Positions 1-63,849 of a DNA stretch of 64,000 nucleotides are shown here, piece after piece. The notes beneath the pieces were generated by a model. The model worked only from the letters and a program-made list of their open reading frames with translations, did no database searches and was not told where the DNA came from. A program made the position numbers and the translations under genes. The DNA lies in IMG/VR virus record IMGVR_UViG_3300046328_000530, positions 1 through 64,000 of that record. The stretch is one strand, 5' to 3'. Each line of letters opens with the position of its first letter. Within the stretch, counting starts at the first letter, position 1. Source of the stretch: a virus.

Positions 1-416
1 ATATTGTGTTGCAACATCCCGTGCCACGTCACCTCTATAAAATCCATTTTCTTCATCCAACTTACCCAAGCCAATTCCCCAGTGCTATAAGTTGGCATTG
101 TTACGTTTTTATGCCAGTAAATCATACCTCCTTTTAATCCGAAATAGTTAGCACCCCAAATGATTTGCTTTTTACTTACTCTAAAAAGTTGCTCAAAATA
201 TTCATCATTTGGTATTGCATTATCCCAATTAGTTTTTTTGTAGGTATTGATTTTAGCCATTGATGTTTTTTCGTGCCTATCACTATTTTTGCCATTGTTT
301 TTGTTATCAGCATCAATACCATAAGGTGGGTCAACTATGGCTAAATCATAGTATTTATCAGGTTTACTTTTCATAAACTCAATGCAGTCTATATTATAAA
401 ATTCAATTTTTGCCAT
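1..416 (-). CDS. DNA methyltransferase (DPPY type), N-terminal part, runs off the window
   Basis: Starts at the ATG complementary to 414-416 and stays open to the window edge (138 codons). The N-terminus has the invariant N4/N6 amino-methyltransferase motif DLAIVDPPYGI and continues with the RVSKKQIIWGANYF segment. It is closely related to the methyltransferase at 63019-63714. The last residues visible (WHGMLQHN) normally precede the HPTQKP region and the SAM-binding motif, which are missing here. The piece at 63850-64000 supplies exactly such a C-terminus in a compatible reading phase, so the two are probably one gene across the circle. It is a phage orphan methyltransferase, presumably for self-protection (inference). 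Target sequence unknown. Confidence 0.85.
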   Translation of the reverse strand, partial: MAKIEFYNIDCIEFMKSKPDKYYDLAIVDPPYGIDADNKNNGKNSDRHEKTSMAKINTYKKTNWDNAIPNDEYFEQLFRVSKKQIIWGANYFGLKGGMIYWHKNVTMPTYSTGELAWVSWMKKMDFIEVTWHGMLQHN

Positions 417-471
417 CCATCTTTTTTTCTTTTTTTTATTTAGTGCTTCGATTAAACATTCTGCTAAAAAT

Positions 472-505
472 CCCTACTGCCTATAACAGCGGTTTTGTGC
501 TATTT
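472..505. repeat. attC-like half-site (left arm only)
   Basis: CCCTACTGCCTATAAC (472-487) is the exact reverse complement of GTTATAGGCAGTAGGG at 63774-63789, so it marks the far end of the methyltransferase cassette that crosses the window boundary. It is followed by AGCGGTTTTGTGC, the usual left-arm sequence of the sites in this window. No matching right arm is found before the next site. The downstream gene fills that place, so the site has probably lost one arm by deletion. Confidence 0.6.
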
Positions 506-954
506 TAGGACAGAACCTGCTCAATGACAGATTTTTCAATTATGATACCACGACAATACAATTCGCCATCTTCCATAATGTCAAATGTGGCGTGTGGCAA
601 ATCGGACTTGATACGCCAAGAACATTCCAAATCATCAGGACACCATTCTGCGACAACTTCAACTTTTGGTAATTCAAAATCCAATTCTTTGTCGTCCATA
701 ATTTCCTGCACTTCTTTAAAATCATCTTCACTCATAATATCAATTTTACCACCTTTCTTTTTGACAAGTAAAGCCGAACCACCATCGTATGCCCCGACTT
801 CATCATATACAATACCACGAAATTCTAACAAGTCGTCACTTGCACCAAAGCAAACTAATAGACCGTTTTCCTTTGCCAATTTTTCTTCATCTTTTGTAAT
901 TTCATCACGGTATTGGCGACCGTTTAAAAGTTCTGCGAATTGTTCTTTGTTCAT
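505..954 (-). CDS. hypothetical acidic cassette protein (149 aa)
   Basis: Soluble protein rich in Asp and Glu, without signal peptide or membrane segment. The N-terminus begins MNKEQFAELLNGRQY; a mid-segment GLLVCFGASDDLLEFRG and a conserved-looking CPDD/CSWRIKSDLPHATFDI region suggest a small alpha/beta fold. I recognise it only as a type of protein common in mobile regions of Bacteroidota; no function can be given. Its TAA stop (505-507) lies against the half-site at 472-505, and a full attC-like site follows upstream at 1018-1147, so it is a cassette gene. The start is followed downstream by good coding sequence and preceded by an A-rich leader. Confidence 0.8.
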   Translation of the reverse strand: MNKEQFAELLNGRQYRDEITKDEEKLAKENGLLVCFGASDDLLEFRGIVYDEVGAYDGGSALLVKKKGGKIDIMSEDDFKEVQEIMDDKELDFELPKVEVVAEWCPDDLECSWRIKSDLPHATFDIMEDGELYCRGIIIEKSVIEQVLS

Positions 955-1017
955 TTTTTTTTATTTTTAAATTGTTACTAAATAATTATTTGACACTTGA
1001 CGAAACCGAAAAAAACG

Positions 1018-1147
1018 GCACATAACAGGTGTTTGGCAAAAAAGCCCTTTTGTATTTCTATTTGACATTTGTACTAATTTTAAAAATTTGTAATTCTATT
1101 GAATAGTCGGTTAGGGCTTCTTCGCCAAGCACCCGACCGTTATGGGC
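1018..1147. repeat. attC-like recombination site 1
   Basis: Long imperfect inverted repeat. The left arm is CACATAAC-AGGTGTTTGGC-AAAAAAGCCC, the right arm GGGCTTC-TTCGCCAAGCACC-CGACC-GTTATGGGC. The outer boxes fit the attC consensus RYYYAAC...GTTRRRY. The right arm has one extra G and a longer spacer next to GTT, as in the other sites here. The loop of about 60 bp is AT-rich with a TTGACATTTGTACTAA-like motif. It separates the gene at 505-954 from the Dam-type methyltransferase. Confidence 0.75.
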
Positions 1148-1166
1148 AATTGCAAGAAACACCCTG

Positions 1167-1940
1167 CTAATCGAAAAGCCCTTTTTGTTTTTCATAATTT
1201 GTTATTAATATTTCTGTTCTACGATTTTTTAAGTTTTTCCTTTCGCCAATTATTATGACATTTAAACCTTGTTCTTTTGCTTGGTTAAGAATAAACTCAT
1301 TATCAAATTCACTCATTGCAAATTTGCACCCAGTAGCTTGTAAGCAGTTAAATAAATCAATACTATCCTGTACAGTAAATGAATTGCTATAATTATCATT
1401 CGTTCCTAAATAGGGTGGGTCGCAATAGAAAAAAGATTTTGCCTCGTCATTCCGTCCGTCCGTGTTAAATGTAAGTGTTTTAAAATATTTTCTAAAATCA
1501 TAATTAGTGAATTTACAATCATTAATCATTTCATATGTTTTGTCAATTACTTTAAAAAAAATGTTTTTGTTTTTTGTGAAGGACAAACTCATTCCACTAC
1601 TCACTACACCAATAGTAGTTAAATTGCTAAAAAATAAAAATCTTAAAGCTTTTTGTATAGGGTCTGTTTGTTCATTACTTTTGTAATATTCAAATAAATC
1701 CGAATGAATAGGCATTAAATAAAACGCTTTTTCTAATTCTTCTTTTTGATTAATTACGACTTGAAATAAATTAAAAACTTCACTATCCAAATCATTAACT
1801 ACATTATATTTCGCTTTTGGTTTATTAAAAAACATACCACCAGCCCCAAAAAACGGCTCAAAATATATTTTATGGTCAGGAAAATATTTAATTATATCCT
1901 GTGCTATTGCTTGTTTATTTCCTAATCTTCTTAATATCAT
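1167..1940 (-). CDS. D12-class (Dam-type) DNA N6-adenine methyltransferase
   Basis: Methylates adenine in duplex DNA (family knowledge). An N-terminal RRLGNKQAIAQDI precedes the FEPFFGAGGMFF SAM-binding motif; a central target-recognition part and YCDPPYLGTN (motif IV, DPPY) follow, and the C-terminus has RRTEILITNYE. Length (257 aa) fits Dam enzymes. The open frame extends upstream to 1994 (MQNPCYGQ...), but those codons are the arm of the neighbouring attC-like site, so I choose the internal ATG at 1940 just before the family start. It is the only gene of its cassette; the cassette ends (1139-1153 and 1967-1981) are complementary at 14 of 15 positions. Confidence 0.9.
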   Translation of the reverse strand: MILRRLGNKQAIAQDIIKYFPDHKIYFEPFFGAGGMFFNKPKAKYNVVNDLDSEVFNLFQVVINQKEELEKAFYLMPIHSDLFEYYKSNEQTDPIQKALRFLFFSNLTTIGVVSSGMSLSFTKNKNIFFKVIDKTYEMINDCKFTNYDFRKYFKTLTFNTDGRNDEAKSFFYCDPPYLGTNDNYSNSFTVQDSIDLFNCLQATGCKFAMSEFDNEFILNQAKEQGLNVIIIGERKNLKNRRTEILITNYEKQKGLFD

Positions 1941-1972
1941 TTGACTAAATTTTGAGTACCCGAAAAGCAACT

Positions 1973-2107
1973 GCCCATAACAAGGGTTTTGCAAAAGCAG
2001 GGCATTAGTGGTTTATTGAACATTTTTACTACTATTAAACATTGTGCTAAATTTGAACTTTCGTACCTTGAAGCCCCACCTTCGGCAATACCCGACCCGT
2101 TAGCGGT
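1973..2107. repeat. attC-like recombination site 2
   Basis: Outer boxes GCCCATAAC (1973-1981) and GTTAGCGGT (2099-2107). Arms AAGGGTTTTGC-AAAAGCAGGGC and GCCCCACC-TTCGGCAATACCC pair imperfectly, again with extra bases in the right arm. The loop carries TTGAACATTT and AAACATTGTGCTAAA, motifs shared with the loops of the other sites. The left box is complementary to the start of the Dam cassette and the right box begins the next cassette. Confidence 0.75.
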
Positions 2108-2111
2108 AATA

Positions 2112-2480
2112 CTACCATTCCTCACTATCAGGCAACGTATCTTCAAATCTTTCGTGTTGTTCACCGACAATTTTTAAGTCTTTTATATTTTCACATCGCA
2201 TCATTGACATTCGCAAACCAATATTATTACCTATACTTAATTGATGATTTAACCAGCCGACACAATGTTCTGCATTTTCGCCAGTATCTTTTGAATGATG
2301 ACAAGCCATTATTTTCAAGGCTCTACCAAATCCAAAATCATTTTCTTTTGCAATAGTATCTTGCAAATTCTTGTGTTTAATCTCACAATATCCATCAGGA
2401 ATTTCGTAAGGGTCTGTATCAACTTTCCACGGACATTTTGCACATTGGACAGTTCTTTTAAGTTTAAATTTTTCTGACAT
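2112..2480 (-). CDS. DUF6283 family protein (Cys-rich)
   Basis: 122-aa soluble protein. The motif CAKCPWKVDTDPYEIPDGYC near residue 14, followed by IKHKNLQDTIA, then ACHHSKDTGENAEHCVGWLNHQ, matches the DUF6283 pattern of four to five cysteines and histidines that probably bind a metal. Function unknown. Single gene of a cassette: the ends GTTAGCGGTAATAC (2099) and GTACTACCGCTAAC (2511-2524) are complementary at 13 of 14 positions. The TAG stop lies only 5 bp inside the cassette start. Confidence 0.8.
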   Translation of the reverse strand: MSEKFKLKRTVQCAKCPWKVDTDPYEIPDGYCEIKHKNLQDTIAKENDFGFGRALKIMACHHSKDTGENAEHCVGWLNHQLSIGNNIGLRMSMMRCENIKDLKIVGEQHERFEDTLPDSEEW

Positions 2481-2515
2481 AATAATTCAAAACCCCTTGT
2501 GAATTAAACCGTACT

Positions 2516-2648
2516 ACCGCTAACAAGGGTTTGTAGCAATAGGGGCAGAAGTGCTTTAATTGAGCTGTGTACTTTTAATCAGCTTTTGTGGTAGGTTGAA
2601 CAGTAGTGCTATAAATCCCCTATTGCTACAAGCCCAAACCGTTAGGCG
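2516..2648. repeat. attC-like recombination site 3
   Basis: Boxes ACCGCTAAC (2516-2524) and GTTAGGCG (2641-2648). The arms AAGGGTTTGTAGCAATAGGGG and CCCCTATTGCTACAAGCCC form a stem of about 20 bp with few mismatches, the best paired of all sites here. The right arm again has a longer spacer (AAACC) before GTT. Loop about 70 bp. The TAA stop of the RNA ligase gene is made by the TTA of the right box. Confidence 0.75.
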
Positions 2649-3355
2649 ATATTGTAGAGCGACCAGTTCCATATCAAATTGTGTTCTTCGACATTAATAC
2701 AGAATTGACCTGTTGGAAAATCTGAACGAACATATTTTGCCAAAAAAACAACTTTGCCTTTTCGCTCAACACGATAAACCATCCCTTCAGGAAGTTCAAC
2801 GCTTTCAATTCCTTTTGTCTTTTCATTTAATAATGGCAAAAGTTGTTCAACTGTTATCGGTTGTCCTTCGTGTAATTGGCGTGGCAGTTGCAATCCGTAT
2901 CCAATTGCTTTTGCTCCAAGTTCTTCAAATAAAACACGTTCATTATTTGGCGTGAAATAATCAAAAAACACTATTGGTTCAACTTCAATTCTGTAAACAA
3001 GTCCGTGAGCTTGTGCCAGCCATTCTCCTGTTATTCTTTCGCCATTGTTTAGCATATCTGTAAAAAGCAATTCGCGTTTTTTTACCCAATCAGAAAAGTA
3101 ATGATGTTGTTTATATGGGCTTGTACTTGCTTCATAGCCTGAACGGGTTAAGGCAAATATTTTGTTTTCAAACTTTGCCACGCCAACATTTGAACCATCA
3201 TACTTTTCAAACACTAATATGTTATCGTGCTTATCTCTTGTTTTTAAAGTCAAAATTCGTTCTTGACCTTCTCCAATGTAATAATCCCCTTCGCCTAACT
3301 TCGAGTTATGCAGGTGTGGGATTGAGCCATAATTTTTTCTTCCTATTGGTTTCAT
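2642..3355 (-). CDS. RNA ligase family nucleotidyltransferase
   Basis: Joins or repairs RNA ends with ATP through a covalent lysyl-AMP (family knowledge). Motif I is FEKYDGSNVG with the nucleotidyl lysine K51; then FALTRSG, a motif III-like GERITGEWL, VEPIVFFDYF, a motif IV-like PEGMVYRVER and the motif V lysine in VVFLAKYVR. 237 aa is near the size of the catalytic domain of Rnl2-like ligases, without an extra C-terminal domain. It sits alone in a cassette; its stop codon is inside the right box of site 3. The N-terminal MKPIGRKNYGSI start matches the family's short leader. Likely role: repair of RNA cut by host defence nucleases (inference). Confidence 0.85.
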   Translation of the reverse strand: MKPIGRKNYGSIPHLHNSKLGEGDYYIGEGQERILTLKTRDKHDNILVFEKYDGSNVGVAKFENKIFALTRSGYEASTSPYKQHHYFSDWVKKRELLFTDMLNNGERITGEWLAQAHGLVYRIEVEPIVFFDYFTPNNERVLFEELGAKAIGYGLQLPRQLHEGQPITVEQLLPLLNEKTKGIESVELPEGMVYRVERKGKVVFLAKYVRSDFPTGQFCINVEEHNLIWNWSLYNIA

Positions 3356-3383
3356 ATTTCAAATTTACTGGTTAAAAAACTGC

Positions 3384-3463
3384 GGGTAACAACAGCTAAC
3401 CAAAAGTGGGCGAACTTTTACTACTGTATAGCCCGCCTTCGGTTAGCTGCAAAACGTTATGCC
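3384..3463. repeat. attC-like recombination site 4 (short)
   Basis: Only 80 bp. Boxes GGGTAAC and GTTATGCC. Arms AACAGCTAACC-AAAAGTGGGC and GCCCGCC-TTCGGTTAGCTG pair well, with the extra G again in the right arm and a longer spacer (CAAAAC) before the right GTT. The left box does not match the start of the RNA ligase cassette (GTTAGGCG), so that cassette's end has changed or been replaced. The right box supplies the TAA stop of the next gene. Confidence 0.7.
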
Positions 3464-3684
3464 TTATACTTACCGAGAAAGACATGATTGTCTTCAAAAT
3501 CCTTTTTCATCCTAAAATGCTTGTGTTCGTAATTGACATTCTGAAAGTGATGTTCGCCATTTTTAACTCCAATATACTTATAGTCAATAAATGAAGGTAA
3601 TTGCCAATATCCATCTTTATAAAGGTGATAATGCTTGATTTTAACTTTATCCCCGACTTGTAAATCAGAAAAAGTACAAGGCAT
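3457..3684 (-). CDS. small hypothetical cassette protein (75 aa)
   Basis: Begins MPCTFSDLQVGDKVKIKHYH and contains YIGVKNGEHHFQNV, which looks like a small beta-rich (SH3-like) fold; no function recognised. The frame is open four codons further (MQNV, to 3696), but those codons belong to the attC-like arm GCATAACGTTTTGCA, so the internal ATG at 3684 is preferred. The stop is the TTA of the box GTTATGCC. Cassette ends GTTATGCCTTATAC (3456) and GTACAAGGCATAAC (3674-3687) are complementary at 13 of 14 positions. Confidence 0.65.
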   Translation of the reverse strand: MPCTFSDLQVGDKVKIKHYHLYKDGYWQLPSFIDYKYIGVKNGEHHFQNVNYEHKHFRMKKDFEDNHVFLGKYKA

Positions 3685-3719
3685 AACGTTTTGCACAATA
3701 CTACGAAAGTGCGTTAATT
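3680..3719. repeat. minimal attC-like site 5
   Basis: GGCATAAC, then TTTTGCAC, a loop of about 10 bp, GTGC and GTTAATT. This gives a 40-bp site with only a 4-bp inner stem. The left box is certain because it matches the start of its own cassette; the right half is weaker. The TTA of GTTAATT is the stop of the methyltransferase gene at 3714. Confidence 0.45.
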
Positions 3720-4319
3720 AAACCATTTGAGTTCAGTAGTTCCAACAAAACCTTTTTCCCACACATACCAAGCATAAGCAACAGCACTTCCACCTCCAGC
3801 AACCATCTTTTCAAATTCAGCATTTTTTGCACACATCAGCCGAGAACTTGAAACATAAATTGTCTTTGGTGGGTTTGATAGGAATAGATTTTTTCTACCT
3901 TTCCCTTCCATAAATTGTAATTTCAAAAACATTGCAACCTTGTTTCCTGCTGGTATTATCTGCAATGATTTTTCTACAAACTCCTGTGCATATTTGTAAG
4001 GCGGGTTTGTAATTATATCTCCATTCCATTTAAGGTTATCTATTCCTAAAAAATCTGTTTCTATTTCGCCAAATCCTCTGTCCATCAAATCGCTACTCCT
4101 TACATTATAGCCTTTGCTTTCAAATACCTTGCTTAAATGTCCTTCGCCACAAGCACACTCCCAAATATTTGGCGAAAAAGTTTCAAGTTCTAAAAGCAAT
4201 TCGGCTGCTTTCGGTGTGGTTGCATAGTAATCTTCATTCTGCCTTTCTTTATCTGTATGGTTGCTTGCACCTAATGTTTTGTAGATGCTGTTGCTGTTTC
4301 CTGTCCAATCTTTTGTCAT
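3714..4319 (-). CDS. phage DNA N6-adenine methyltransferase (NPPY type)
   Basis: 201 aa. WECACGEGHLSKVF is the SAM-binding motif I, DLMDRGFGEIETDFL the motif II/III area and DIITNPPYKYAQEFV the catalytic NPPY motif. The rest (AMFLKLQFMEGKGR, KTIYVSSSRLMCAKN) matches small phage and prophage methyltransferases without a separate recognition domain. Third methyltransferase gene of this array. Its stop is made by the box of site 5. The start ATG lies at the right edge of the array; beyond it the phage core genes begin. Confidence 0.85.
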   Translation of the reverse strand: MTKDWTGNSNSIYKTLGASNHTDKERQNEDYYATTPKAAELLLELETFSPNIWECACGEGHLSKVFESKGYNVRSSDLMDRGFGEIETDFLGIDNLKWNGDIITNPPYKYAQEFVEKSLQIIPAGNKVAMFLKLQFMEGKGRKNLFLSNPPKTIYVSSSRLMCAKNAEFEKMVAGGGSAVAYAWYVWEKGFVGTTELKWFN

Positions 4320-4343
4320 TTCGTTATGATTTAATTAAATTTT

Positions 4344-15829: not shown

Positions 15830-15844
15830 GTGTCGTTAAGGTTG

Positions 15845-15878
15845 CTCCTAACGTTTCGCAGATTTGCGATGGGCGGGA
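15845..15878. repeat. left arm of inverted repeat bounding accessory block II
   Basis: CTCCTAACGTT-TCGCAGATTTGCGAT-GGGCGGGA. Its reverse complement, with the same outer 11 bp and inner 8 bp, stands at 20819-20852. The box CTCCTAAC fits attC RYYYAAC. The two arms together would make one attC-like site whose loop now holds about 4.9 kb. Confidence 0.6.
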
Positions 15879-15918
15879 TTTAGAAAACGAATTTATCAAC
15901 TTAAAACAAAAATTTATA

Positions 15919-16622
15919 TGGAACACGAAACATCATTAAACAACGAAAAACATCGCCTAACAGCAGATTTGCTATTAGGCGATGTTTTTCTCCCACTTCT
16001 CAAAAAATTTGCATCAAATTATGATATGAGAGAATGGATGGCAACCCCTTTCAATGTAGGAAATAGAACGGTTGCGACAAATGGCTATTGCTTATTATCA
16101 ACTCCTTTTCAAGAAGGGTTTAATGATAGAAGCGAAAAAACAAAAACAGTTTATCCTATGGATCATAAGATAAACAAACCTATTCCAGTTGATGAATTAA
16201 AGCAAAAATTAAAAGAATTTCCTTTAGTGGATTGCTTTGATGAAATTGAAACAACGTGCGATGCTTGTAATGGCGATGGAGAGGTAGAATTTGAGTTTTA
16301 TCATAGTGGAAAAACCTATGAAATGGAACACGATTGCCCTGTTTGCGATGGGCAAGGAGTAACAAATACACAATCAAAAACACCAAACGGTAAAAAGGAA
16401 CTTGACTACAACAAATTCTTTCAAATTGGTAAGTGCATTTTCAATGTTGCAAGAGTAGAAGAATTGATTTATGTCGCTGACTATTTAAAATCCGATGTTG
16501 TAAATATTGTAAACCAAACGGAGAAAAACAGAGCTTCTTTATTTACAATAAAAGATGTCGAAATGTTGGTAATGCCTATGATGTGTGATGATGAACGGAA
16601 TGTCGCTCAAAATATCGCCTAA
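15919..16622 (+). CDS. hypothetical protein with CxxCxGxG zinc-binding repeats
   Basis: Start taken at 15919 (MEHETSLNNEK); the upstream frame runs into the attC-like arm. 234 aa. TRTVATNGYC-like strings (VGNRTVATNGYCLL) resemble a DUF found in Bacteroidota mobile regions; CDACNGDGEVEF and CPVCDGQGV are a DnaJ-type pair of C-x2-C-x-G-x-G motifs that bind one zinc. The cassette edges lie inside the gene: TTAGGCGATG at 15975 and ATATCGCCTAA, whose TAA is the stop codon, at 16612-16622. An ATG at 16021 would give a shorter product that starts inside the cassette. Function unknown. Confidence 0.6.
15945..15990. repeat. perfect 16-bp inverted repeat inside a coding region (mini attC-like)
   Basis: GAAAAACATCGCCTAA and TTAGGCGATGTTTTTC enclose CAGCAGATTTGCTA, which itself has AGCA/TGCT. 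The boxes GCCTAAC and TTAGGC fit an attC, except that the base before TTAGGC is A, not G. The segment encodes NEKHRLTADLLLGDVF of the zinc-binding protein. Confidence 0.55.
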
Positions 16623-16772
16623 CGGTTAATTAACAACTAAATTTAATACGAAGATGAATAAAGAAATTTCACAAAGCGATGGCGAATTGGCTTTTAGTTC
16701 ATATCATTATGCGACCACACTCTTTTTAATTTTCTGAATATCATATTCTTTTTGTTTTGTGCCAATAAAAAC

Positions 16773-16909
16773 GGCTTATAACAGCGGTTTTAAGAAATGG
16801 CGGGTTTAGTGATTAATTTAAACATTGTGTGTACTTTTGTGTTTTGGCTTTACCGAAAGTTTTGGCTTGTAAATCCGCAACTTCTTAAAGCCACGATACG
16901 TTATATGCC
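16773..16909. repeat. attC-like recombination site 6
   Basis: Boxes GGCTTATAAC (16773-16782) and GTTATATGCC (16900-16909). Arms AGCGGTTTTAAGAAATGGCGGG and ATCCGCAACTTCTTAAAGCC pair over about 20 bp, with a longer spacer (ACGATAC) before the right GTT. Loop about 75 bp containing TTTAAACATTGTG. It is the upstream border of the restriction-modification cassette. The rest of 16623-17023 holds no gene. Confidence 0.75.
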
Positions 16910-16959
16910 ATTTTAGGGCGACAGTACAAAGATAAGCATTTGTGCTAAAATTTCAACAT

Positions 16960-16996
16960 TTTGATACCACTCCCTACCAAAAAATATGTAACTTTG
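16960..16996 (+). promoter_or_regulatory. promoter inside the restriction-modification cassette
   Basis: TAACTTTG at 16989-16996 is a good -7 box, with TTTG at 16960-16963 (spacer 25, longer than usual). It lies 28 bp before the ATG at 17024 and inside the cassette edge at 16900, so the cassette carries its own promoter. Confidence 0.45.
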
Positions 16997-17023
16997 CAAA
17001 TTATAATTTTAATTACAAATTAA

Positions 17024-18844
17024 ATGGCTAACGAAAGCAAAACAGAATTATTAGTTTATGACCACTTCAAGAAATTTGAAGACAAAATAACTATTGAACC
17101 TAAAAAGTCAAGCAATCCTGCTATTGACAAACTTCTGCAAAATGCTTCCAAAAAAGGAAATTTTAAAGGATACCCTGAATATATTATATCATTTAATGAA
17201 TATCCTGACTTATTAATAGTTATAGAATGTAAAGCACATAATATAAAACACCAAAGCAATACTCCTAAATTTGACAAATATGCGGATTATGCTGTAGATG
17301 GGGCATTACTTTACGCTTCATTTTTACAAAAAGAGTTTAATGTAATAGCAATTGGAATTAGCGGAGAAACAAAAAAAGATTTAAAAATTTCTCATTTTTT
17401 ATTCCTAAAGGAACAAAAAAATTATACTACAATATTTGACGATAAACTTTTAGATATTGATAGTTATGTACAAGGCTTCTTAAAAAGTCCTGAAAAATTT
17501 AAACAAGACTATGATAGTTTAATCAAGTACTCAAAAGAACTAAACGAAGAACTACAAAATAAAAAAGTAAAAGAAAATCAACGTAGTCTTTTAATAAGTG
17601 GTATTATGATAGCACTTGACAACAGAGTTTTTTCTAAAACATATAAAGAACATACAACACCTAAAGACCTTGCAGACAATTTAGTTACTACTGTAATTAC
17701 TCAATTGAAAAATGCTAAAATTGGAGTGAGTAAACTTGAAAATTTGGAAGTTGCTTATTCATTCATTAAAGTTCACAGTGCATTAGCAAATGAAAATGGT
17801 GTTTTAGTAAATCTTATTAAAAATATTGATGAAAAGGTAAACAGTTTTATCCGTTCTCATAAATACTTTGACGTATTATCTGAATTTTACATTGAATTTT
17901 TAAGAAAATCAAATAGCGATAAAGGTTTAGGAATTGTGTTAACACCACACCATATCACGGATTTATTCAACGCAATTGCAGGTACAAATAAAGAAAGTAT
18001 AGTTTTTGATAACTGTACAGGAACTTCAGGGTTTCTTGTAAGTGCAATGAGAGCAATGTTTAAAGATGCAAAAGGCGACATTACAAGAGAAGATAATATC
18101 AAACAAAAACAACTTATAGGAATTGAAGAACAATCAGATATTTATGCTTTGGCTTGTAGCAATATGTATTTGCAAGGAGATGGAAAAAGCAATTTAATTT
18201 ATGGTAGTTGTTTTGAAGATTTACATATTAAAAAAGTAAAAACTTTTAATCCAAATATTGGTTTTCTAAATCCACCATACAAAGCAAATAAAAAGAAAGA
18301 CACAGAAGAATTAGAATTTGTATTGAATAATTTAGAATGTTTAGTGCCTAACGGCACTTGCATTGCAATTATTCCAATGCAGTGTGCTTTAGCTCAAAAA
18401 GGCAAAATACTTGAACTAAAGAAAAAAATACTTTCTAAACATACATTAGAAGCAGTAATGAGTATGCCAGATGAATTATTTTTTAATTCAAACGTTGGAG
18501 TAGTTTCTTGTATTATGGTTTTTACAGCTCACAAAGTACACCCGACAAACAAAGAAACATATTTTGGTTATTGGAAAGATGACGGATTTGTAAAACGTAA
18601 AATAAAAGGGCGTTTTGACGCTTTAAATAAGTGGCAAGGAGTTAAAGAAAAATGGATAGAAAGTTATATCAATAAAAAATCTATTGCAGGAATGAGTGTA
18701 ATGAAGTCTATTACTGCAAATGATGAATGGTGTGCAGAAGCATATATGGAAACGGATTACAATTCATTGAATGAAATTGATTTTATAAAAACTATCAAAG
18801 ATTTTGTATTTACAAACGAACTATACATTAAAAAATGGAATTAG
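17024..18844 (+). CDS. BcgI-like restriction-modification subunit (nuclease plus N6-adenine methylase)
   Basis: 606 aa, fusion. Residues about 1-180 form a PD-(D/E)xK nuclease: YPDLLIVIECKAHN has P61-D62 and E68-x-K70. A helical linker follows, then an HsdM-type methylase: HHITDLFNAIAG, VFDNCTGTSGFLV (motif I) and IGFLNPPYKAN (motif IV, NPPY). A separate specificity subunit follows with a 10-bp overlap. This is the arrangement of type IIB/BcgI enzymes, which cut and methylate with one A subunit and one B subunit. No key residue is missing. The two genes fill one cassette between attC-like sites 6 and 7, with complementary ends GTTATATGCC and GGCATATAAC. Confidence 0.85.
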   Translation: MANESKTELLVYDHFKKFEDKITIEPKKSSNPAIDKLLQNASKKGNFKGYPEYIISFNEYPDLLIVIECKAHNIKHQSNTPKFDKYADYAVDGALLYASFLQKEFNVIAIGISGETKKDLKISHFLFLKEQKNYTTIFDDKLLDIDSYVQGFLKSPEKFKQDYDSLIKYSKELNEELQNKKVKENQRSLLISGIMIALDNRVFSKTYKEHTTPKDLADNLVTTVITQLKNAKIGVSKLENLEVAYSFIKVHSALANENGVLVNLIKNIDEKVNSFIRSHKYFDVLSEFYIEFLRKSNSDKGLGIVLTPHHITDLFNAIAGTNKESIVFDNCTGTSGFLVSAMRAMFKDAKGDITREDNIKQKQLIGIEEQSDIYALACSNMYLQGDGKSNLIYGSCFEDLHIKKVKTFNPNIGFLNPPYKANKKKDTEELEFVLNNLECLVPNGTCIAIIPMQCALAQKGKILELKKKILSKHTLEAVMSMPDELFFNSNVGVVSCIMVFTAHKVHPTNKETYFGYWKDDGFVKRKIKGRFDALNKWQGVKEKWIESYINKKSIAGMSVMKSITANDEWCAEAYMETDYNSLNEIDFIKTIKDFVFTNELYIKKWN

Positions 18845-19797
18845 TCCCAATACATAAACTATTTACTGTAAAGTATGGTGTTAATCTTGAATTAGTACAC
18901 CTTGAGCAATGTTCAAAAGACGATGAAAACTCTATAAATTTTGTTTCACGTACTGAAAACAATAATGGAGTTTCGGCTTTTGTTATAAAATCAGAAGATA
19001 TAACACCCAATCCAAAACATACGATTTCAGTTGCAGGCGGTGGTTCTGTACTTTCTTCCTTTTACCAAGAAGAAGAATATTATAGTGGAAGAGATATATA
19101 TTATTTAAAACCACTAACTAATTTCTCAAAATTAGAGATGTTATTTTATGCTTTTTGCCTAACAAAAAATAAATACAAATACAATTACGGCAGACAAGCA
19201 AATAAAACTTTAAAAGATATTTTAGTTCCCTCTAAAATGCCAAAATCTTTTGAAAAATTAGACATAAACGAACTTAATACTTTAAATAGAAAAAGCACTT
19301 TAAATTCTAATATTGAACTTAATCATAATAATTGGGGGTGGTTTTCATTGAGCGACCCAAGATTATTTAAAATATCGGGAACAAAAACAACACCTTTATT
19401 AGAACTTGAAGAATTTGGAAAAGGAGAAAAACCATTTGTAACAACACAAGCCAGTAATAATGGGATAGGTGGCTTTTTTGACTTCTCAACAGAAACAGGA
19501 AATGTTTTGACAGTTGATAGTGCTGTTATTGGCTATTGTTCATATCAACCTTTAGACTTTTCAGCAAGCGACCACGTTGAAAAATTAACACCCACTTTTA
19601 GACTAAATAAATACATAGCATTGTTTATAGCGACAATTATCAATAAAGAACAATATCGTTATAATTATGGACGTAAAGCAAGTCAAACAAGACTAAAAAG
19701 AGCTAACATAAAACTTCCTGTAAAGCAAAACGGACAACCCGACTTTGAATATATGGAGAACTATATTAAAACATTACCATATTCAAGCACAATATAA
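18835..19797 (+). CDS. type I-like specificity subunit (HsdS/BcgIB type)
   Basis: 320 aa with two target-recognition halves. The first ends with NKYKYNYGRQANKTLKDILV, the second with EQYRYNYGRKASQTRLKRAN, a clear internal repeat; GKGEKPFVTTQASNNGIGGF marks the second recognition domain. It gives DNA sequence specificity to the preceding nuclease-methylase. The 10-bp overlap shows coupled translation. It ends 18 bp before attC-like site 7. Confidence 0.85.
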   Translation: MELVPIHKLFTVKYGVNLELVHLEQCSKDDENSINFVSRTENNNGVSAFVIKSEDITPNPKHTISVAGGGSVLSSFYQEEEYYSGRDIYYLKPLTNFSKLEMLFYAFCLTKNKYKYNYGRQANKTLKDILVPSKMPKSFEKLDINELNTLNRKSTLNSNIELNHNNWGWFSLSDPRLFKISGTKTTPLLELEEFGKGEKPFVTTQASNNGIGGFFDFSTETGNVLTVDSAVIGYCSYQPLDFSASDHVEKLTPTFRLNKYIALFIATIINKEQYRYNYGRKASQTRLKRANIKLPVKQNGQPDFEYMENYIKTLPYSSTI

Positions 19798-19815
19798 AAC
19801 AATAAGAAGAAAAAC

Positions 19816-19953
19816 GGCATATAACAGGGGTTTTGCAAAAAAGCGGGTTCAGTGCTAAATTGAACATTTGGAATTCTAATGAACATTTGTGCTAAACCGA
19901 ACATTTGTGCTTTCTAATCCGCTTCTTCGCAAAGCCACGATACGTTATATGCC
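19816..19953. repeat. attC-like recombination site 7
   Basis: Boxes GGCATATAAC (19816-19825) and GTTATATGCC (19944-19953). Arms AGGGGTTTTGC-AAAAAAGCGG and CCGCTTC-TTCGCAAAGCC, extra G in the right arm, spacer ACGATAC before GTT. The loop has the motif GAACATTTG three times. Box and spacer of the right arm are nearly identical to site 6. Confidence 0.8.
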
Positions 19954-20018: not shown

Positions 20019-20762
20019 TTAAAATAGTTTCGTTTGACATAGTTCTAATTCTAATCGTTTCATTGATTTTTCGTAATACTCTTTATTCATTTCTGCACCT
20101 ATAAAGTTTCGTTTCTCTAAAATACAAGCGTGTGCAGTTGTTCCACTTCCCATATAACCATCAAATACCAAATCGTTTTCGTTGCTGAAGGTTTGAATAA
20201 GGTATCTAATCAAATCAATTGTTTTTTGTGTTGGATGGTCGTTTTCACTTGTTCTATCTCCATTGCTAAAATCAATTACACTTTGCGGAAAATATTGGTC
20301 ATCCACTTTAGTTTTTCCTTCATAGCTTCCGTAATTTGTTGTCGCATTACCTTTTTTACTTCCTTTCATTCGCATTTTACCAACAACCATTTGCGGATTA
20401 TAAGTTGGCAGTTTTCTATAAAAAACTAATATCATTTCGTGGTTTCTCATCGGCATTTTGTTAGCGTTTAAAAATCCAGTTCCTAATGCTTTGTACCAAA
20501 TCAAATCATATCTGAAATTCTTTTGGTTGCTCAATATCAATTCACTTGCAAATGGTTGTGTAGCAAAAAATATCATTGCTCCATTTTCTTTTGTTACTCG
20601 CTCCCATTCAGTCCACATTTTAGGTAAATCGGGCTTTATATCCCATTCGTTTTGAGTGCAACCAAAAGGAGTATCTTGCAAAAGCAAATCAATAGTTCCG
20701 CTTTCAATTTCCTGCAACAATTCGTAACAGTCCTGATTATATATTTTATTTATTTCCACCAT
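20019..20762 (-). CDS. DNA methyltransferase with DTPF in place of DPPY
   Basis: 247 aa. MVEINKIYNQDCYELLQEIE, LLLQDTPFGCTQNEWDI (motif IV position) and a C-terminal HPTQKTIDLIRYLIQTF, VFDGYMGSGTTAHAC (SAM motif I) and FIGAEMNKEYYEKSMKRL make a beta-class N4/N6 methyltransferase. DTPF instead of DPPY is rarer but seen in this class (D-x-P-Y/F). It lies against the direction of the restriction-modification pair in the same block. Its 3' flank (AAAAGCCACCGCACTTTTTA) resembles the 3' flank of the methyltransferase at 63850. Confidence 0.85.
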   Translation of the reverse strand: MVEINKIYNQDCYELLQEIESGTIDLLLQDTPFGCTQNEWDIKPDLPKMWTEWERVTKENGAMIFFATQPFASELILSNQKNFRYDLIWYKALGTGFLNANKMPMRNHEMILVFYRKLPTYNPQMVVGKMRMKGSKKGNATTNYGSYEGKTKVDDQYFPQSVIDFSNGDRTSENDHPTQKTIDLIRYLIQTFSNENDLVFDGYMGSGTTAHACILEKRNFIGAEMNKEYYEKSMKRLELELCQTKLF

Positions 20763-20818: not shown

Positions 20819-20852
20819 TCCCGCCCGAACGCATATACTCGAACGTTAGGAG
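20819..20852. repeat. right arm of inverted repeat bounding accessory block II
   Basis: TCCCGCCC-GAACGCATATACTCG-AACGTTAGGAG. Reverse complement partner of 15845-15878. From 20853 to 21040 I see no gene; this stretch holds a short palindrome GGGTAA-CA-TTACCC and an inverted repeat ACAATTATA...TATAATTGT at about 20983-21016. Confidence 0.6.
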
Positions 20853-21040
20853 ATACTTTAAGAAACACTCTGCTTCGATTGAAACAATTCCGACAACTTG
20901 TAAATAGTATCAGCCATTTGACCAAACTCATTACTTATTTACTAAGTTTTATTTTCGGGTAACATTACCCTCTTTGTATAGAACAATTATACATAACTAA
21001 TGCTATATATAATTGTCATGGGAATGTCATGCTGTGAAAT

Positions 21041-33100: not shown

Positions 33101-36100
33101 TATCATTCCCATCAGCCTTTATCGCTTTGTTAACCTTATCCCGTGAGGCATTGTCTTTATTGGAGAAAAAATCCTTTGTCACCTTCTCAATTTCCCACCC
33201 AACACGCCCAATTTTCCTAAGTATTCCAAACGCAACACCCCTCGCCTTCTGCCTTTGCATTTCACCAGATATTTTCCGCACCTTGCTAAGTTGGTCTTCT
33301 AACTTATCGGAATTTTCAAACTCTTTGGTAATACGATATTCCAAATCATTTTCCAAAGAGATTATCGCCAAAGATTCACTATCGTAATTCACCTTGTTTT
33401 TGGCAATATAATCAAGCATTTCCTCTACATAGTTATCCCCATACTCTTGTTTTGCTGCCTCAACTATAGCTACACCGTGGGCAAACGCCGCATCTAAGTT
33501 CGCTTTGAAGTATTCCTTTTCGTACTGTGTTTGTTCTCTGCCTGATTCCCTCTCGATATTGTTGAGCGTTTCTGCAACCTCTGTGCTTTCAATGCCCAGC
33601 TTTAACTTGTCGGTAAATGTATTTTCAATACCTCTACTATGCACCTCTTCAACCTTATACTTATGTTCATCCATAAAATCATCGCCAAAGTCATCTCTCA
33701 TTGTGCTAAGGACATCAACAAGCTTTACAATCCCTTCTTTTGCATACGATTCTATCACTTTAGCAAGTTTTGCTGTGAATGTTGCCACATCTGCTCCGAT
33801 TGATAGTGTGCCACGGGATTTGTTCACGAATGATAACATGTCGCTTACTGCGGCCTTTCGTTCTGCTGTGGCTGCTTGTAGTCTTGTGTCTTTTTTCCCT
33901 GAATCGGTTCTTTGTCCTTCTTTGGAAGATCGTACACTCCTGCCGAGTCCATCAGGATCACCAGTTGTAACCTTTTCTGTTTCGGTAGATACTGGCTGTA
34001 CATCAGCCTTAGTTTCTTTAAATGGAGTTCCTTGTTCATTTTTTATAGCTTCTTTAGGTACTCCAAAGTTTTCAATTTGCTGTTTTGTTTCCACATCCCC
34101 TACACCACCACTACCTGCTTTGGGTGTTTCAGGGTTAACCCCTTTTACTTCGTTGTAAAAATTAGTAAAGGCTTGTTTTGGCGATAAATCTCCGTTAGGG
34201 TTGTATTTCTCACTAAAGGCATCGGCTACGATTTGTGATACACCTTTAACATTTTGCGATGCACTAAACGCTTCATCTACATTGGTTTTTGAGTTAACAA
34301 TATCTACAAATGGCTTAAATGTAGTTTCAACAGATTTTGTGGGTGCTTCTTTGGTGGGTAGGGATTGTTCTACTGCTTTATTGTATTCAGTTTTTATCTC
34401 GGAAAGTGTTTCTTTATGCTTTGATATTATTTCGTTGTAATCATCAACTGCTCTTTGATAACCTTTTTTAAGTTTGCCATTATCAAGATGCGACATTTTA
34501 CCAAACCCTTCAATGTTTTTTATACCCCTTTCTGCATTGGCTATTTTTGATTCTAATTCTTTTTTGTCAAAATCATAATCCCTTTTTAAAATTCCTCCTC
34601 TGGTTAATTTGCCATCAGGATCAATAACTTTTCCGTCCAATATTGCTTGTTCGTATGCTTTTTTACCTTCGGCTTTTTTGTTCTTCATTGCTTGAAAGGC
34701 ATCGTCTTGTTCTTTAATAGAACGATTGGATTGACGTTTCCCCTCTAACCCTCTGCCGCCTAATAATTGTGCTTGGAAAGATGTGTCATAATCATCAGGA
34801 TAACCATTTTCCTTTGCAAATTGTGTAAAGTTTTGATTTTTTGGTTCAAATACACCACTACCTGCTTCCTTATCATTTACATCTTCATACCCGTATTTTT
34901 TAGGTTCTACTTTATCAGTTTCAACATTTTGATCACCAGTTGTAACCTTTTCTGTTTCGGTAGATACTGGCTGTACATCAGCCTTAGTTTCTTTAAATGG
35001 AGTTCCTTGTTCATTTTTATCATTTACTTCTTCATGGAACATCTCTGCTAATTTTACAACATGCTCTGTACTATCTACATCTTGGGTACCTGATATAGTA
35101 GACTGTTTATTTTCTTTAGTTCTACCATCCAATAATTTCTGAATCATATCAGCAACCTCATTGTTTTTTATCAATAAACTCTGCCCATTTATTTTCTGAT
35201 TCAATACATCATCAACCAATTTTAATTTTAAAGACTTCAAATAATCTACATCATCAACACTTAAATTTTGCTTATTACCGCCTGATTCTACGGTTATATC
35301 AGGATTTTCAATTGATGGCAGATTAGCAGCAGATTTATTTTCTGGCTTAATACCATCTAACTCCTTGTTAATACCATCCAATTTAATTTGTAATTGTGCT
35401 TTAGTTTCAGGAGATATATTTGGATTATTGATTATCTGTTCAATTTTCTCTGATTCAGTCACCAAATCATCTACATTAGCCTTTTGTACATCAGTTAAAC
35501 TGTTGTAAACCTTACTATCTTCATCAATATGGTCGTTAATTTTCTCGGTCATGTTACCAACCTCGCTCATTAATACTTCTTTCTCCTGTGAACTGATATT
35601 AGGATTGTCAATTTCAGAAGTTAGTCTATTAATAGCTTCACTATCTTTGGTAATGGTTTGTTTTGTTTTAGGATTAACTATTTTAGAGATCCCCTTAGTA
35701 AGACTTGCTATACCTCCTGTCATACCTAAGCTTATCAATGCTGCATCGCCTACACCTTCAAGGAAATCTCTTTCTGGGTCGACTCCAGACCATTTATCTG
35801 TAGCATTTTTCCAAACCTGATTAGCAACTTCTCCTGACATATCTCCTAATACAGCAGAACCCACGAATGCTTTTTTAAATGATTTATCCAAATAACCCTG
35901 AATACCCTTTTTAACGACTTCTTCTGCCTCTTTTTCTGCTCCTTTTATAAATAATTTTCTGCCTTGATCATACAACATGCTAGTACCTACCAATTCAGAA
36001 CCTGCTTCTCCTATCCCAGTTAAAACAGCATTTATATATAGAGTATTCTTGTTAATGTTAGGGTTTGATTCCTTTAAATCCTCATAAGTTGTTCCGGTTG

Positions 36101-49570: not shown

Positions 49571-49601
49571 TTTATTTATTTGTTTTAAGTGAGTTAATTG
49601 T

Positions 49602-50768
49602 TTACTTACCGTTTGCAACTCGCTCTAAAAACGACTGGTATTGTTCTTGTTTATTAACATCTACCTGTGGTTCAATCTGTGGCGCAAGGCCAGATCTGTT
49701 TTCGTATTTATTGACAATTCTTTCTGTTACAACTGACTCTGCATGAGTAAATATACTCTTTGCAATTTTATCAAAGTTCTCAGCTAAGTAATTAGCTTTG
49801 GCATACATAGCAAAGCTATTTACGCCATCTTGCGTAATTGGCTCATTATTTAACATGAAATAATTCTCCGCCATTTCATGAACCTTAGCTTTATACTCTT
49901 CTGCAAAGGGCATGTCAAGCATCACAGCTTCATCCCCTTCTTTACCATTCAAATTTACATTGCCCAATCCTTGTATGGAGTTGGCAATCTTTGGAGCTTC
50001 CTGCTTAACTAAGTTTTTGTGTTGCTCTGTATCTGCTATTTGTTGTAACCTGTTTTTCTCCTGAATTTCTTTTTCGGGATTTTCAACAGTTGTTAATTGT
50101 GTTTTATACTTATTTAATGCCTCAAAATCCGATTTTGAACTCACGCGAAGTTCATCTTCAAGGATTTCTCGTTCATCTGTTCCTTCATCAAAATCATCCA
50201 AAGGATATTCTCTGTCTACCTTCTTTCTTGCTACTACCTCGCTATACCCATCCACAAGGACAAGTTTGGCTACCTTAGCATCAAGAGGATTCAGATCGCT
50301 TAACTCTCCGGCTTCATTTAATTTAACAAAGGCTTTTAATTGATCTGCACTTGCACCCGCTTGAGCGAGTTCATTTAATTCTTTTACAAATCCATTAGCG
50401 TATGTTATCTGATTTTTTTCGAGATCAGCCTTTTGTTGCGCCAATGATTCGTATTCCGAAATCTTTGGAAGTGCTTGTTTAAAGCTGTCTACATCTTTAA
50501 ACATACCGCCCGTCTCTGCTTCAATCCATTTGTTGTAATCCGGCGCTGCTACTACTGGTGCAGCAGTCGTTTCCTCTGTTTTGATTGCAGGAGCTAATTC
50601 CTCTTGTATTTCAGTTGTTGTTTCTATTACCACATCAGCCATCGCAGCCTGTGGTGTTTCTACTGATTGTTCGCTTACCTCTTGTGCAGCCATCGCAGCA
50701 GCCTCTTGTGGTTGTGAACCGAATTGCTTTGCAGCATACTCTAAAATTTCTTCTGTATCTGTTGCCAT
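49602..50768 (-). CDS. scaffold-like protein
   Basis: 388 aa, acidic. An Ala/Glu/Gln-rich flexible N-terminus (AAAMAAQEVSEQSVETPQAA) and a helical body with coiled coil (SLAQQKADLEKNQITYANGF, NPEKEIQEKNRLQQIADTEQ). Position between portal and capsid and low complexity are those of phage scaffolding proteins, which guide capsid assembly and then leave. No protease motif seen. Confidence 0.65.
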   Translation of the reverse strand: MATDTEEILEYAAKQFGSQPQEAAAMAAQEVSEQSVETPQAAMADVVIETTTEIQEELAPAIKTEETTAAPVVAAPDYNKWIEAETGGMFKDVDSFKQALPKISEYESLAQQKADLEKNQITYANGFVKELNELAQAGASADQLKAFVKLNEAGELSDLNPLDAKVAKLVLVDGYSEVVARKKVDREYPLDDFDEGTDEREILEDELRVSSKSDFEALNKYKTQLTTVENPEKEIQEKNRLQQIADTEQHKNLVKQEAPKIANSIQGLGNVNLNGKEGDEAVMLDMPFAEEYKAKVHEMAENYFMLNNEPITQDGVNSFAMYAKANYLAENFDKIAKSIFTHAESVVTERIVNKYENRSGLAPQIEPQVDVNKQEQYQSFLERVANGK

Positions 50769-50770
50769 AA

Positions 50771-50842: not shown

Positions 50843-50870
50843 TGAATTATTGAATATAAATACAATATTA

Positions 50871-53381: not shown

Positions 53382-53398
53382 TGTGATGTTTGTTTTAG

Positions 53399-53495: not shown

Positions 53496-53499
53496 ACTC

Positions 53500-58824: not shown

Positions 58825-58826
58825 AA

Positions 58827-63018: not shown

Positions 63019-63714
63019 CTAAAAGAGCCGCTGCTGTCTTTTGTGCAAATTGAAAGCGTTTACACCCGATTGAAAATATTCTGAATCAATTTCACAAATA
63101 TCTAAGTCGAAGCCTTCAATTTCACACGCTATTGCACTTGTCATACTTCCGCCGTGAGTGTCTAATATTTTCATTCCAGTTTCGGCATATTTCAAACAAT
63201 ACCTATATAAATCTATTGGTTTTTGACAAATGTGTCTCCTGTCAGTCATTACAGTTCTTTTTCTAAACATTCGGGTTGCCGTTGTAAACGAAGTCCATGC
63301 AATTTCGCAATCTGAAAAATAGCTTTCCCCGTTTTTTTTATCCCAAACAATAAAACAACTTGTAGGCTTTTCAATTAAATCAATAAAGTAATTACCCCCC
63401 CAAATGATTTGCTTTTTACTTACTCTAAAAAGTTCATTAAAATACTCCTTACTTGGTCGTTCAAAGTCCCATTGTGTTTCGCTGGCAATGCTCCCTTTAT
63501 TTTCTTTTCTTTGCCCCCAGTTTCCAGCTTCGGTTTTTACTAATCCAATCCCATACGGAGGGTCAACAATTGCCAAATCAAAACATTTGTCAGGCTTCGA
63601 CTTCATAAACTCAATGCAATCCACATTGAAAAAATTAATAGAAGGGCAGCGGCTAACACTCGCTATATGCAATGCGGGGTTACTGCTAATTTGTAAGTTC
63701 ATATCTTCGTTCAT
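63019..63714 (-). CDS. DNA methyltransferase (DPPY type)
   Basis: 231 aa from the ATG at 63714; the frame is open to 63762. NFFNVDCIEFMKSKPDKCFD, LAIVDPPYGIGLVKTEAGNW (motif IV), RVSKKQIIWGGNYF, then CQKPIDLYRYCLKYAETGMK, ILDTHGGSMTSAIACEIEGF (SAM motif I) and ICEIDSEYFQSGVNAF make a complete beta-class N4/N6 methyltransferase. The first 20 residues (MNEDMNLQISSNPALHIASV) are encoded by the arm of an attC-like site, so the original gene start was displaced. Sister of the gene split over the window ends. Terminator follows. Confidence 0.85.
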   Translation of the reverse strand: MNEDMNLQISSNPALHIASVSRCPSINFFNVDCIEFMKSKPDKCFDLAIVDPPYGIGLVKTEAGNWGQRKENKGSIASETQWDFERPSKEYFNELFRVSKKQIIWGGNYFIDLIEKPTSCFIVWDKKNGESYFSDCEIAWTSFTTATRMFRKRTVMTDRRHICQKPIDLYRYCLKYAETGMKILDTHGGSMTSAIACEIEGFDLDICEIDSEYFQSGVNAFNLHKRQQRLF

Positions 63715-63780
63715 TCTGTATCGTATTTTGATAGTTTTGTACTTGTAAATCCCGCACTGCACATAGCGGAAACGTTATAG
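63651..63780. repeat. attC-like recombination site 8
   Basis: Boxes GGCTAAC (63651-63657) and GTTATAG (63774-63780). Arms GCTATATGCAATGCGGGGTTA and TAAATCCCGCACTGCACATAGC pair over about 20 bp. The left arm lies inside the methyltransferase coding sequence. The right box opens the cassette that continues over the window edge to the half-site at 472-487. Confidence 0.7.
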
Positions 63781-63849
63781 GCAGTAGGGCAGACGTTCTT
63801 CGTTTCAACATTTGTGGAAGAAAAAAAAGAAAAAAAGCCCACCGCACTT

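What the first reader, a model, noticed from the sequence alone, without database searches (positions are those of the whole stretch)
17024..19797. Complete BcgI-like restriction-modification system as one cassette with its own promoter
A nuclease-methylase fusion with intact P-D...E-x-K and NPPY, plus a two-domain specificity subunit, lies between two nearly identical attC-like borders and has a TAACTTTG box inside the cassette. Phages normally carry only methylases; a full cutting enzyme could act against competing phages or plasmids, or make the cassette addictive.
Basis: partly seen in the sequence, partly recalled or inferred. Interest (0 to 1): 0.62.

Follow-up and report, generated by a model that had tools for sequence, protein, structure and literature searches.

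The report
Restriction enzyme cassette in a phage
A bacterial virus carries a complete DNA-cutting-and-marking system packed as a swappable gene cassette of a kind that many bacteria of the virus's likely host group keep in their own chromosomes, which suggests that bacteria and viruses trade such weapons.

Summary
The pair is real. A 606-aa nuclease-methylase fusion and an overlapping 320-aa two-domain specificity subunit form a BcgI-like (Type IIB) system whose nuclease and methylase residues are intact. It is one cassette (16901-19944) between two attC-like sites. Those sites belong to a family that, in Bacteroidota chromosomes, forms one-directional arrays headed by a tyrosine recombinase. 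A model built only from host sites finds both borders (E 2.5e-23 and 4.6e-28). Host arrays carry restriction enzymes as cassettes, and one Bacteroidota genome has a BcgI-like pair with an attC-like site right behind it. In 51 other viral stretches with such sites, 59 of 64 cassette ORFs run against the site, and Pfam finds methylases but no restriction-enzyme family. The window's RM pair runs with its site, like host cassettes: it looks like a host defence cassette taken up by a phage. No tyrosine or serine recombinase was detected in the phage. Complete phage RM systems (Sau42I) and phage cassette arrays with methylases are known; the combination appears new. The 'own promoter' claim is weak; function (self-protection, attack on rival or host DNA, addiction) is inferred. 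In passing: the array-head recombinases lack the extra domain of classical integron integrases.

The parts
16901..19944 (+). the RM cassette as an integron-type cassette would be cut (from the TT of the R' core of the upstream site to the G of the R' core of its own site)
   Evidence: GTTA cores end at 16903 and 19947; identical core context CCACGATACGTTATATGCC at both ends
17024..18844 (+). nuclease-methylase fusion (RM subunit), 606 aa
   Evidence: ORF; PADLOC Type IIG 2.1e-148; N6_Mtase; 43-sequence alignment; model pLDDT 89; structure matches
18835..19797 (+). specificity subunit with two target-recognition domains, 320 aa; start overlaps the end of the RM gene by 10 nt
   Evidence: ORF; Methylase_S, 2 stretches; PADLOC Specificity_II
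16772..16909 (+). attC-like site I (5' border)
   Evidence: -18.1 kcal/mol; host-only model R2 106.5 bits, E 2.5e-23
19815..19953 (+). attC-like site J (the RM cassette's own site)
   Evidence: -20.5 kcal/mol; R2 126 bits, E 4.6e-28
16989..16996 (+). TAACTTTG box 28 nt before the RM start codon; possible -7 element, not shown
   Evidence: shuffle probability 0.12 for TAnnTTTG in the leader
15843..15984 (-). further attC-like site, opposite strand
   Evidence: found by both models though in neither training set: R1 34.9 bits, R2 47.8 bits
15918..16622 (+). zinc-finger (DnaJ/Anti-TRAP-like) phage gene (listed ORF 15864-16622; likely start at the ATG at 15918) whose start lies inside the minus-strand attC-like site
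   Evidence: phrog_20807 2.3e-22; sequence; weak Pfam matches below cut-off
20019..20762 (-). N6/N4 DNA methylase next to the RM cassette, running against site J
   Evidence: PF01555 1.2e-30; phrog_67
63647..63783 (+). attC-like site of the other array
   Evidence: R2 87.5 bits; -20.7 kcal/mol
1016..1148 (+). attC-like site of the other array
   Evidence: R2 80.2 bits; -21.2 kcal/mol
1971..2108 (+). attC-like site of the other array
   Evidence: R2 74 bits; weak pairing, -13.2 kcal/mol
2514..2650 (+). attC-like site of the other array
   Evidence: R2 98.5 bits; -24.9 kcal/mol
3380..3463 (+). short attC-like site of the other array
   Evidence: R2 49.1 bits; -16.7 kcal/mol
1167..1994 (-). D12-class DNA methylase of the other array, against its sites
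   Evidence: PF02086 4.1e-20
3714..4319 (-). DNA methylase (phrog_799) at the edge of the other array
   Evidence: 2.5e-63
63019..63762 (-). DNA methylase whose start lies inside the 63647-63783 site
   Evidence: PADLOC MTase_II 2.5e-40; phrog_23224

Best explanation
A complete Type IIB (BcgI-like) restriction-modification operon travels as one cassette of a Bacteroidota-type integron system and has been captured, in host-type orientation, into a phage that already carries inverted methylase cassettes. SHOWN by sequence: intact RM and S genes; two attC-like borders of the same family as host chromosomal arrays; host arrays with restriction enzymes as cargo and one BcgI-like pair followed by such a site; no tyrosine or serine recombinase detected in the phage record. 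INFERRED: capture by a host recombinase acting on the folded site (or by homologous or illegitimate exchange at the arrays). INFERRED: two RM subunits and one S subunit bind a split target, methylate both strands at half-methylated sites and cut on both sides of fully unmodified sites. Phage DNA made in the presence of the enzyme would be marked; on the next infection the phage is protected against host enzymes of the same specificity, while unmarked DNA in the cell (a co-infecting phage, a plasmid, or the host chromosome) is open to cutting. Self-protection is the likeliest selected benefit, since the neighbouring cassettes are methylases; the cutting activity is probably retained, not decayed.
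For: ORFs and families. Catalytic residues in 43 of 43; BsaXI needs E73, D90, E105 and K107 for cutting (PMC11997821, passages). N-terminal domain model (pLDDT 94) matches an HsdR fragment (3h1t, Z 10.9, rmsd 3.2, 118 aligned) and the nuclease part of Type IIG BpuSI (3s1s, Z 9.2, rmsd 3.3, 125 aligned); residues 156-583 match Type I M subunits (2okc Z 30.6, rmsd 4.0, 381 aligned) and the model aligns with BsaXI (8w2p Z 27.1, rmsd 19.1, 492 aligned). Borders. Host arrays: 174 of 395 genomes with sites; array heads; cargo. Host BcgI-like cassette. Orientation: host 134 of 150 ORFs with the site, other viral cassettes 5 of 64, window RM pair with the site. Base composition: RM gene 28.3% GC against 35.1% for the window. 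No PF00589 or PF00239 match in the phage.
Against: No activity, methylome or expression data. The closest relatives of the fusion (54-60% identity) are mostly in other phyla and show no site of this family nearby; the host pair with a site is only 33% identical and its site scores weakly (24.3 bits with R1, 30.4 with R2). No second phage with this cassette was found. The core GTTATAT departs from the strict GTTRRRY at one position. Phage lifestyle and host are unknown. A mis-assembly at the repeated cores cannot be excluded from one record; the only near-identical record (L078, 100% identical over 13.7 kb) stops at window position 62971, before the arrays.
Confidence: 0.68

Rival explanations
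1. Methylase-only use: the system is kept only to mark phage DNA against a host enzyme of the same specificity; cutting is silent because the protein is made late or the phage kills the host anyway.
For: Neighbouring cassettes in the window are mostly methylases; among 64 ORFs of other viral cassettes 15 match N6_N4_Mtase and 9 C5 methylases and no restriction-enzyme family appears. Published view of phage cassette methylases (PMC9892861, section 3.4 read).
Against: The nuclease domain is complete and its residues are kept; a pure methylase role would not need it.
Confidence: 0.45
2. Weapon: phage DNA arrives marked, host chromosome and rival phage DNA are not, so the phage-made enzyme degrades host DNA and/or rivals, as chlorovirus enzymes do with host chromatin.
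For: Intact enzyme. Chloroviruses package restriction enzymes that are thought to degrade host DNA (PMC7019647, passages); marseillevirus RM could cut co-infecting relatives (PMC7253447, passages).
Against: In chloroviruses the same review says the enzymes are not responsible for mutual exclusion, and in marseilleviruses host DNA is not degraded. BcgI-type proteins join cutting and marking, so timing is not separately controlled. I found no phage precedent.
Confidence: 0.25
3. Selfish or addictive cassette: the RM genes stabilise themselves (post-segregational killing) and the phage is only a vehicle.
For: Gene-linked RM in a mobile cassette; operon with overlap.
Against: Addiction needs long-term carriage in dividing cells; no integrase or resolvase family match was found in this phage. 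One-protein cut-and-mark enzymes are poorer addiction modules (recalled reasoning).
Confidence: 0.12
4. The borders are not recombination sites but transcription terminators or other hairpins common in Bacteroidota.
For: Strong palindromes with AT-rich loops; no recombination tested here.
Against: Sites recur as one-directional arrays, each behind a different gene, headed by a tyrosine recombinase in 12 of 30 genomes examined; all 57 host sites keep CGTT; R2 also finds sites in Polaribacter phage P12002L (30.1 and 20.4 bits), a phage whose attC sites were assayed in print (whether these are the same sites was not checked).
Confidence: 0.08
5. Assembly chimera: a host cassette array was joined to a phage contig at the repeated cores.
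For: Cores repeat exactly for about 24 nt; RM genes have lower GC; only one record.
Against: The array is flanked by phage genes on both sides, other viral contigs carry such arrays, and the neighbouring methylase cassettes have the phage orientation.
Confidence: 0.08

Closest known systems
Sau42I, BcgI-like RM system of Staphylococcus aureus phage phi-42
   Same: Phage-borne two-gene BcgI-like system, overlapping genes (X94423: 49-1968 and 1949-2962); 29% identity; described as phage-encoded Type II in PMC6532042 (passage)
   Different: Converting phage of another host phylum; no attC-like sites of this family found with R1
BcgI / BsaXI Type IIB enzymes
   Same: RM fusion plus separate two-TRD S subunit; PD-(D/E)xK plus N6-methylase; structural matches to 8w2p
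   Different: Bacterial enzymes; no phage or cassette context known to me
Phage CALINs (clusters of attC sites lacking an integrase), Qi et al. 2023, PMC9892861
   Same: attC sites without integrase in phages, methylase cassettes, including Polaribacter phage P12002L, where R2 also rings
   Different: In the section and passages read the cassettes carry methylases; no full RM system is reported there
Restriction systems as integron cassettes in bacteria
   Same: RM genes inside attC-bounded cassettes (stated in PMC9892861; seen here in host arrays)
   Different: Bacterial chromosomes, not phages
Chlorovirus RM systems
   Same: A complete RM system encoded by a virus with marked DNA (PMC7019647, passages)
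   Different: Eukaryotic viruses, separate enzyme and methylase, enzyme packaged in virions

Membership tests
BcgI-like Type IIB RM system | N-terminal PD-(D/E)xK nuclease fused to an N6-adenine methylase | tested here: met
   G49, P51, E68, K70 and NPP kept in 43 of 43, position 52 E or D; N-terminal model matches HsdR fragment Z 10.9 and BpuSI Z 9.2; N6_Mtase
BcgI-like Type IIB RM system | separate S subunit with two target-recognition domains | tested here: met
   two Methylase_S stretches; PADLOC Specificity_II
BcgI-like Type IIB RM system | cuts on both sides of a split target and methylates it | not testable with these tools
   needs purified enzyme or methylome
Integron-type gene cassette | recombination site behind the gene, folding as R''-L''...L'-R' around TAAC/GTTA | tested here: met
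Integron-type gene cassette | strict core 5'-GTTRRRY-3' | tested here: not met
   core is GTTATAT, one position off; so it is called attC-like, Bacteroidota type, not canonical attC
Integron-type gene cassette | site family associated with a dedicated tyrosine recombinase | tested here: met
   12 of 30 array-bearing genomes have one at the array head; none in the phage itself
Integron-type gene cassette | site is recombined by an integron integrase | not testable with these tools
   needs a cell assay
Classical integron (IntI with additional domain) | integrase with the IntI-specific insert next to these arrays | tested here: not met
   11 aligned array-head recombinases lack the insert that two canonical IntI in the same alignment have; the two tested score 207-211 bits, below the 265-bit cut-off
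CALIN (attC cluster without integrase) | at least two sites and no integrase in the element | tested here: met
   8 sites, no PF00589 match; record may be incomplete
Sau42I-type RM of a temperate phage | carried by a temperate phage | tested here: inconclusive
   no PF00589 or PF00239 match, but the record is called linear and other routes to lysogeny were not searched

The most novel reading that the evidence does not exclude
Bacteroidota possess a widespread integron lineage run by short recombinases that lack the extra domain thought essential for integron integrases. Phages tap this lineage: they keep a parallel pool of inverted, mostly methylase cassettes, and occasionally take host defence cassettes whole. 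The RM cassette is such a capture and gives the phage a working restriction enzyme against unmarked host or rival DNA.
Probability: 0.3. Interest if true: 0.8.

Novelty: new variant of a known kind. Interest (0 to 1): 0.56.

Why it matters
A complete restriction enzyme carried by a phage in a host-type recombination cassette would show a concrete route by which bacterial defence systems enter phages and come out again, and would make testable whether phages use them for self-marking, against rivals, or against the host chromosome. The surrounding evidence suggests that cassette arrays in Bacteroidota are common but may escape standard detection because their recombinase lacks the domain used to recognise integron integrases.

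Tried and rejected
'Own promoter': motif counts and shuffles do not support it; host cassettes show TAnnTTTG downstream of 11 of 53 sites against 5.5 in shuffles (largest of 200 shuffles 13) and 7 on the reverse strand: suggestive at most.

Close relatives in IMG/VR: none with the protein alone; the profile search gave 79, none with R1 sites. Palindromes turned up in 10 of 110 other loci: I inspected L091 and L093 (L092 has the same coordinates), where they lie inside coding sequence; L074 is the host pair of L186; the other six were not inspected.

Empty site: the related phage G401 (67% terminase identity) shares structural genes but shows no counterpart of the flanks of the RM array and has no R1 site, so no empty site could be read. 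L084 was left out of the alignments because its translation holds a stop codon.

Structure search of the whole model is dominated by the methylase, so the nuclease domain was folded alone. Foldseek gave no match at E 0.001 or better for it; the Z-scores come from the second look. Sequence search of PDB found only Type I M subunits. Rfam: no match. NCBIfam: no match for either RM protein. The 20-mer border pattern had no hit in viral contigs.

Full report
WHAT IS THERE. The window lies in a 64,097-bp virus record. At 17024-18844 and 18835-19797 two plus-strand genes overlap by 10 nt. The first is a Type IIG/IIB nuclease-methylase fusion (PADLOC 2.1e-148; Pfam N6_Mtase 1.2e-24), the second a specificity subunit with two Methylase_S stretches. 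An alignment of 43 sequences (the window, 11 of the 19 loci from genomes and 31 of the 79 viral loci; L084 was dropped for a stop codon) keeps G49, P51, E68, K70 and N416-P417-P418 in all, with E (37) or D (6) at position 52. In the Type IIB enzyme BsaXI, alanine at E73, D90, E105 or K107 abolishes cutting (PMC11997821, passages); I read P51-E52 and E68-x-K70 as the counterparts of D90 and E105-x-K107 (inference from motif order). A model of the N-terminal 155 residues (pLDDT 94) aligns with an HsdR fragment (Z 10.9) and the nuclease part of BpuSI (Z 9.2); Foldseek itself gave no match at E 0.001 or better. The whole model (pLDDT 89) matches Type I M subunits and BsaXI.

THE BORDERS. Pairing of arms around TAAC...GTTA gives six sites in the window at -16.7 kcal/mol or lower, with spans of 120-126 nt except one of 73; twelve randomised windows had a best of -14.7. 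The two RM borders are among them, 74% identical overall. A covariance model of six window sites (R1) found two more (3380-3463 and 15843-15984). Because R1 was trained on the sites in question, I built R2 from 57 host sites only, although those host sites had themselves been found with R1. R2 finds all eight window sites, the RM borders with E 2.5e-23 and 4.6e-28 and far better on the plus strand (106.5 against 19.9 bits; 126 against 17.1), and two sites in Polaribacter phage P12002L at E below 0.02 that R1 had missed; attC sites of that phage have been assayed in print (PMC9892861, section 3.4).

WHERE THE SITES COME FROM. R1 matched 174 of 395 genomes drawn from the phylum of an Ekhidna MAG, i.e. 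Bacteroidota. In the fetched stretches the sites form one-directional arrays. In 12 of 30 array-bearing genomes a tyrosine recombinase of one family lies 0.65-11.6 kb from the nearest site; in ten it is on the strand of the sites and upstream, in two on the opposite strand. Most of the fetched stretches were picked because a recombinase hit lay near, so 12 of 30 is the fairer count; in the other 18 the hit was missing, on another contig or far away. One of the twelve (L163) is split between frames. Eleven recombinases aligned with two canonical IntI lack the IntI-specific insert; the two tested score 207-211 bits against the integron integrase cut-off of 265. The two canonical IntI (L178, L179) have no R1 site on the fetched stretch. 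[quoted passage not shown] I found no paper on such arrays; the library lacks preprints and most subscription journals.

HOST CASSETTES CARRY RESTRICTION SYSTEMS. Of 173 ORFs in the host arrays I scanned the 150 longest: they include AccI and Eco47II restriction enzymes, Eco57I- and GmrSD-type proteins, C5 methylases, GajB, AbiU and reverse-transcriptase defence proteins. The BcgI-like fusion occurs in 7 of 395 Bacteroidota genomes, 8 loci. One of the eight (L186, genome G198) has the pair (633 and 363 aa, overlapping), an attC-like site right after the S gene (-17.4 kcal/mol; R1 24.3 bits with filters off, R2 30.4), then a P-type ATPase gene and a second, strong site. Two others have only a weak or distant candidate (L184, R1 23.6 bits, about 2.4 kb upstream; L189, a palindrome about 3.6 kb away); the rest show none.

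ORIENTATION. In host arrays 134 of 150 ORFs run in the direction of the site. A pattern scan of IMG/VR gave 51 stretches, and R2 finds sites in all 51, as expected since the pattern is part of the site. Using 112 of the 151 R2 matches, ORFs of at least 100 aa lying between consecutive sites run with the site in 5 and against it in 59 of 64 cases (26 loci; Fisher p 1.2e-31; some loci are near-duplicates, e.g. L206/L211, so the p-value is too small). Pfam finds 15 N6_N4 and 9 C5 methylases among the 64 and no restriction-enzyme family. No BcgI relative was found in the 51. In the window the ORFs of the other array (505-4319 and 63019-63762) and the gene at 15918 follow the phage orientation, while the RM pair follows the host orientation. 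Together with its low GC (28.3% against 35.1%) this points to uptake of a host-type cassette (inference).

FUNCTION. Nothing here measures activity. The likeliest reading is a working cut-and-mark enzyme whose marking protects phage DNA. Whether it also destroys rival or host DNA is open: chlorovirus enzymes are thought to degrade host DNA but do not cause exclusion (PMC7019647, passages), and marseillevirus RM could cut co-infecting relatives but does not degrade host DNA (PMC7253447, passages). No tyrosine recombinase or resolvase family match was found in the phage record, so any cassette movement must rely on the host or on other recombination.

NOVELTY. Complete BcgI-like systems in phages are known (Sau42I; PMC6532042 passage; record X94423), as are phage attC clusters with methylases (PMC9892861) and RM cassettes in bacterial integrons (stated there). 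The combination, a complete RM system in an attC-bounded phage cassette, did not appear in the listings of searches or in the section of PMC9892861 that I read. I file it as a new variant of a known kind.

Noticed in passing
L161, L162, L165-L169, L171, L172, L175, L176 (array heads): Bacteroidota cassette arrays are headed by a tyrosine recombinase (355 and 373 aa in the two measured) that ends in S-P-x-(D/E)-x-(L/I/M) like integron integrases but lacks the IntI-specific insert; standard tools would probably call such arrays integrase-less.
   Followed up: partly
L191-L241 and window 505-4319, 63019-63762: Cassettes in viral contigs run against their attC-like site (59 of 64 ORFs), the opposite of host arrays (16 of 150); several methylase genes start inside the site.
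   Followed up: partly
window 63019-64000 and 1-4320: A second array spans the contig ends; a methylase gene seems to be split between window end and start (paralogous repeats 142-407 and 63386-63639), suggesting that the record continues around. Also an RNA ligase (2642-3355) and a DUF6283 gene as cassettes.
   Followed up: no
L078 (IMGVR_UViG_3300046329_000111): A contig from another sample is 100% identical to window 49256-62971 except for a short gap near 54917-54945, and ends just before the cassette array, as if assembly broke at a variable array.
   Followed up: no
window 15836-15855 and 20842-20861: Inverted copies (85%) of a GTTAGGAG core mark the outer edges of the RM-bearing array.
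   Followed up: no
L091, L093: BcgI-like pairs also sit in prophage-like contigs, in L091 among phage structural genes and in L093 next to an integrase gene (gene identities by eye).
   Followed up: no
window 33956-34043 and 34931-35018: An exact 88-nt direct repeat 975 nt apart inside the 2278-aa gene.
   Followed up: no
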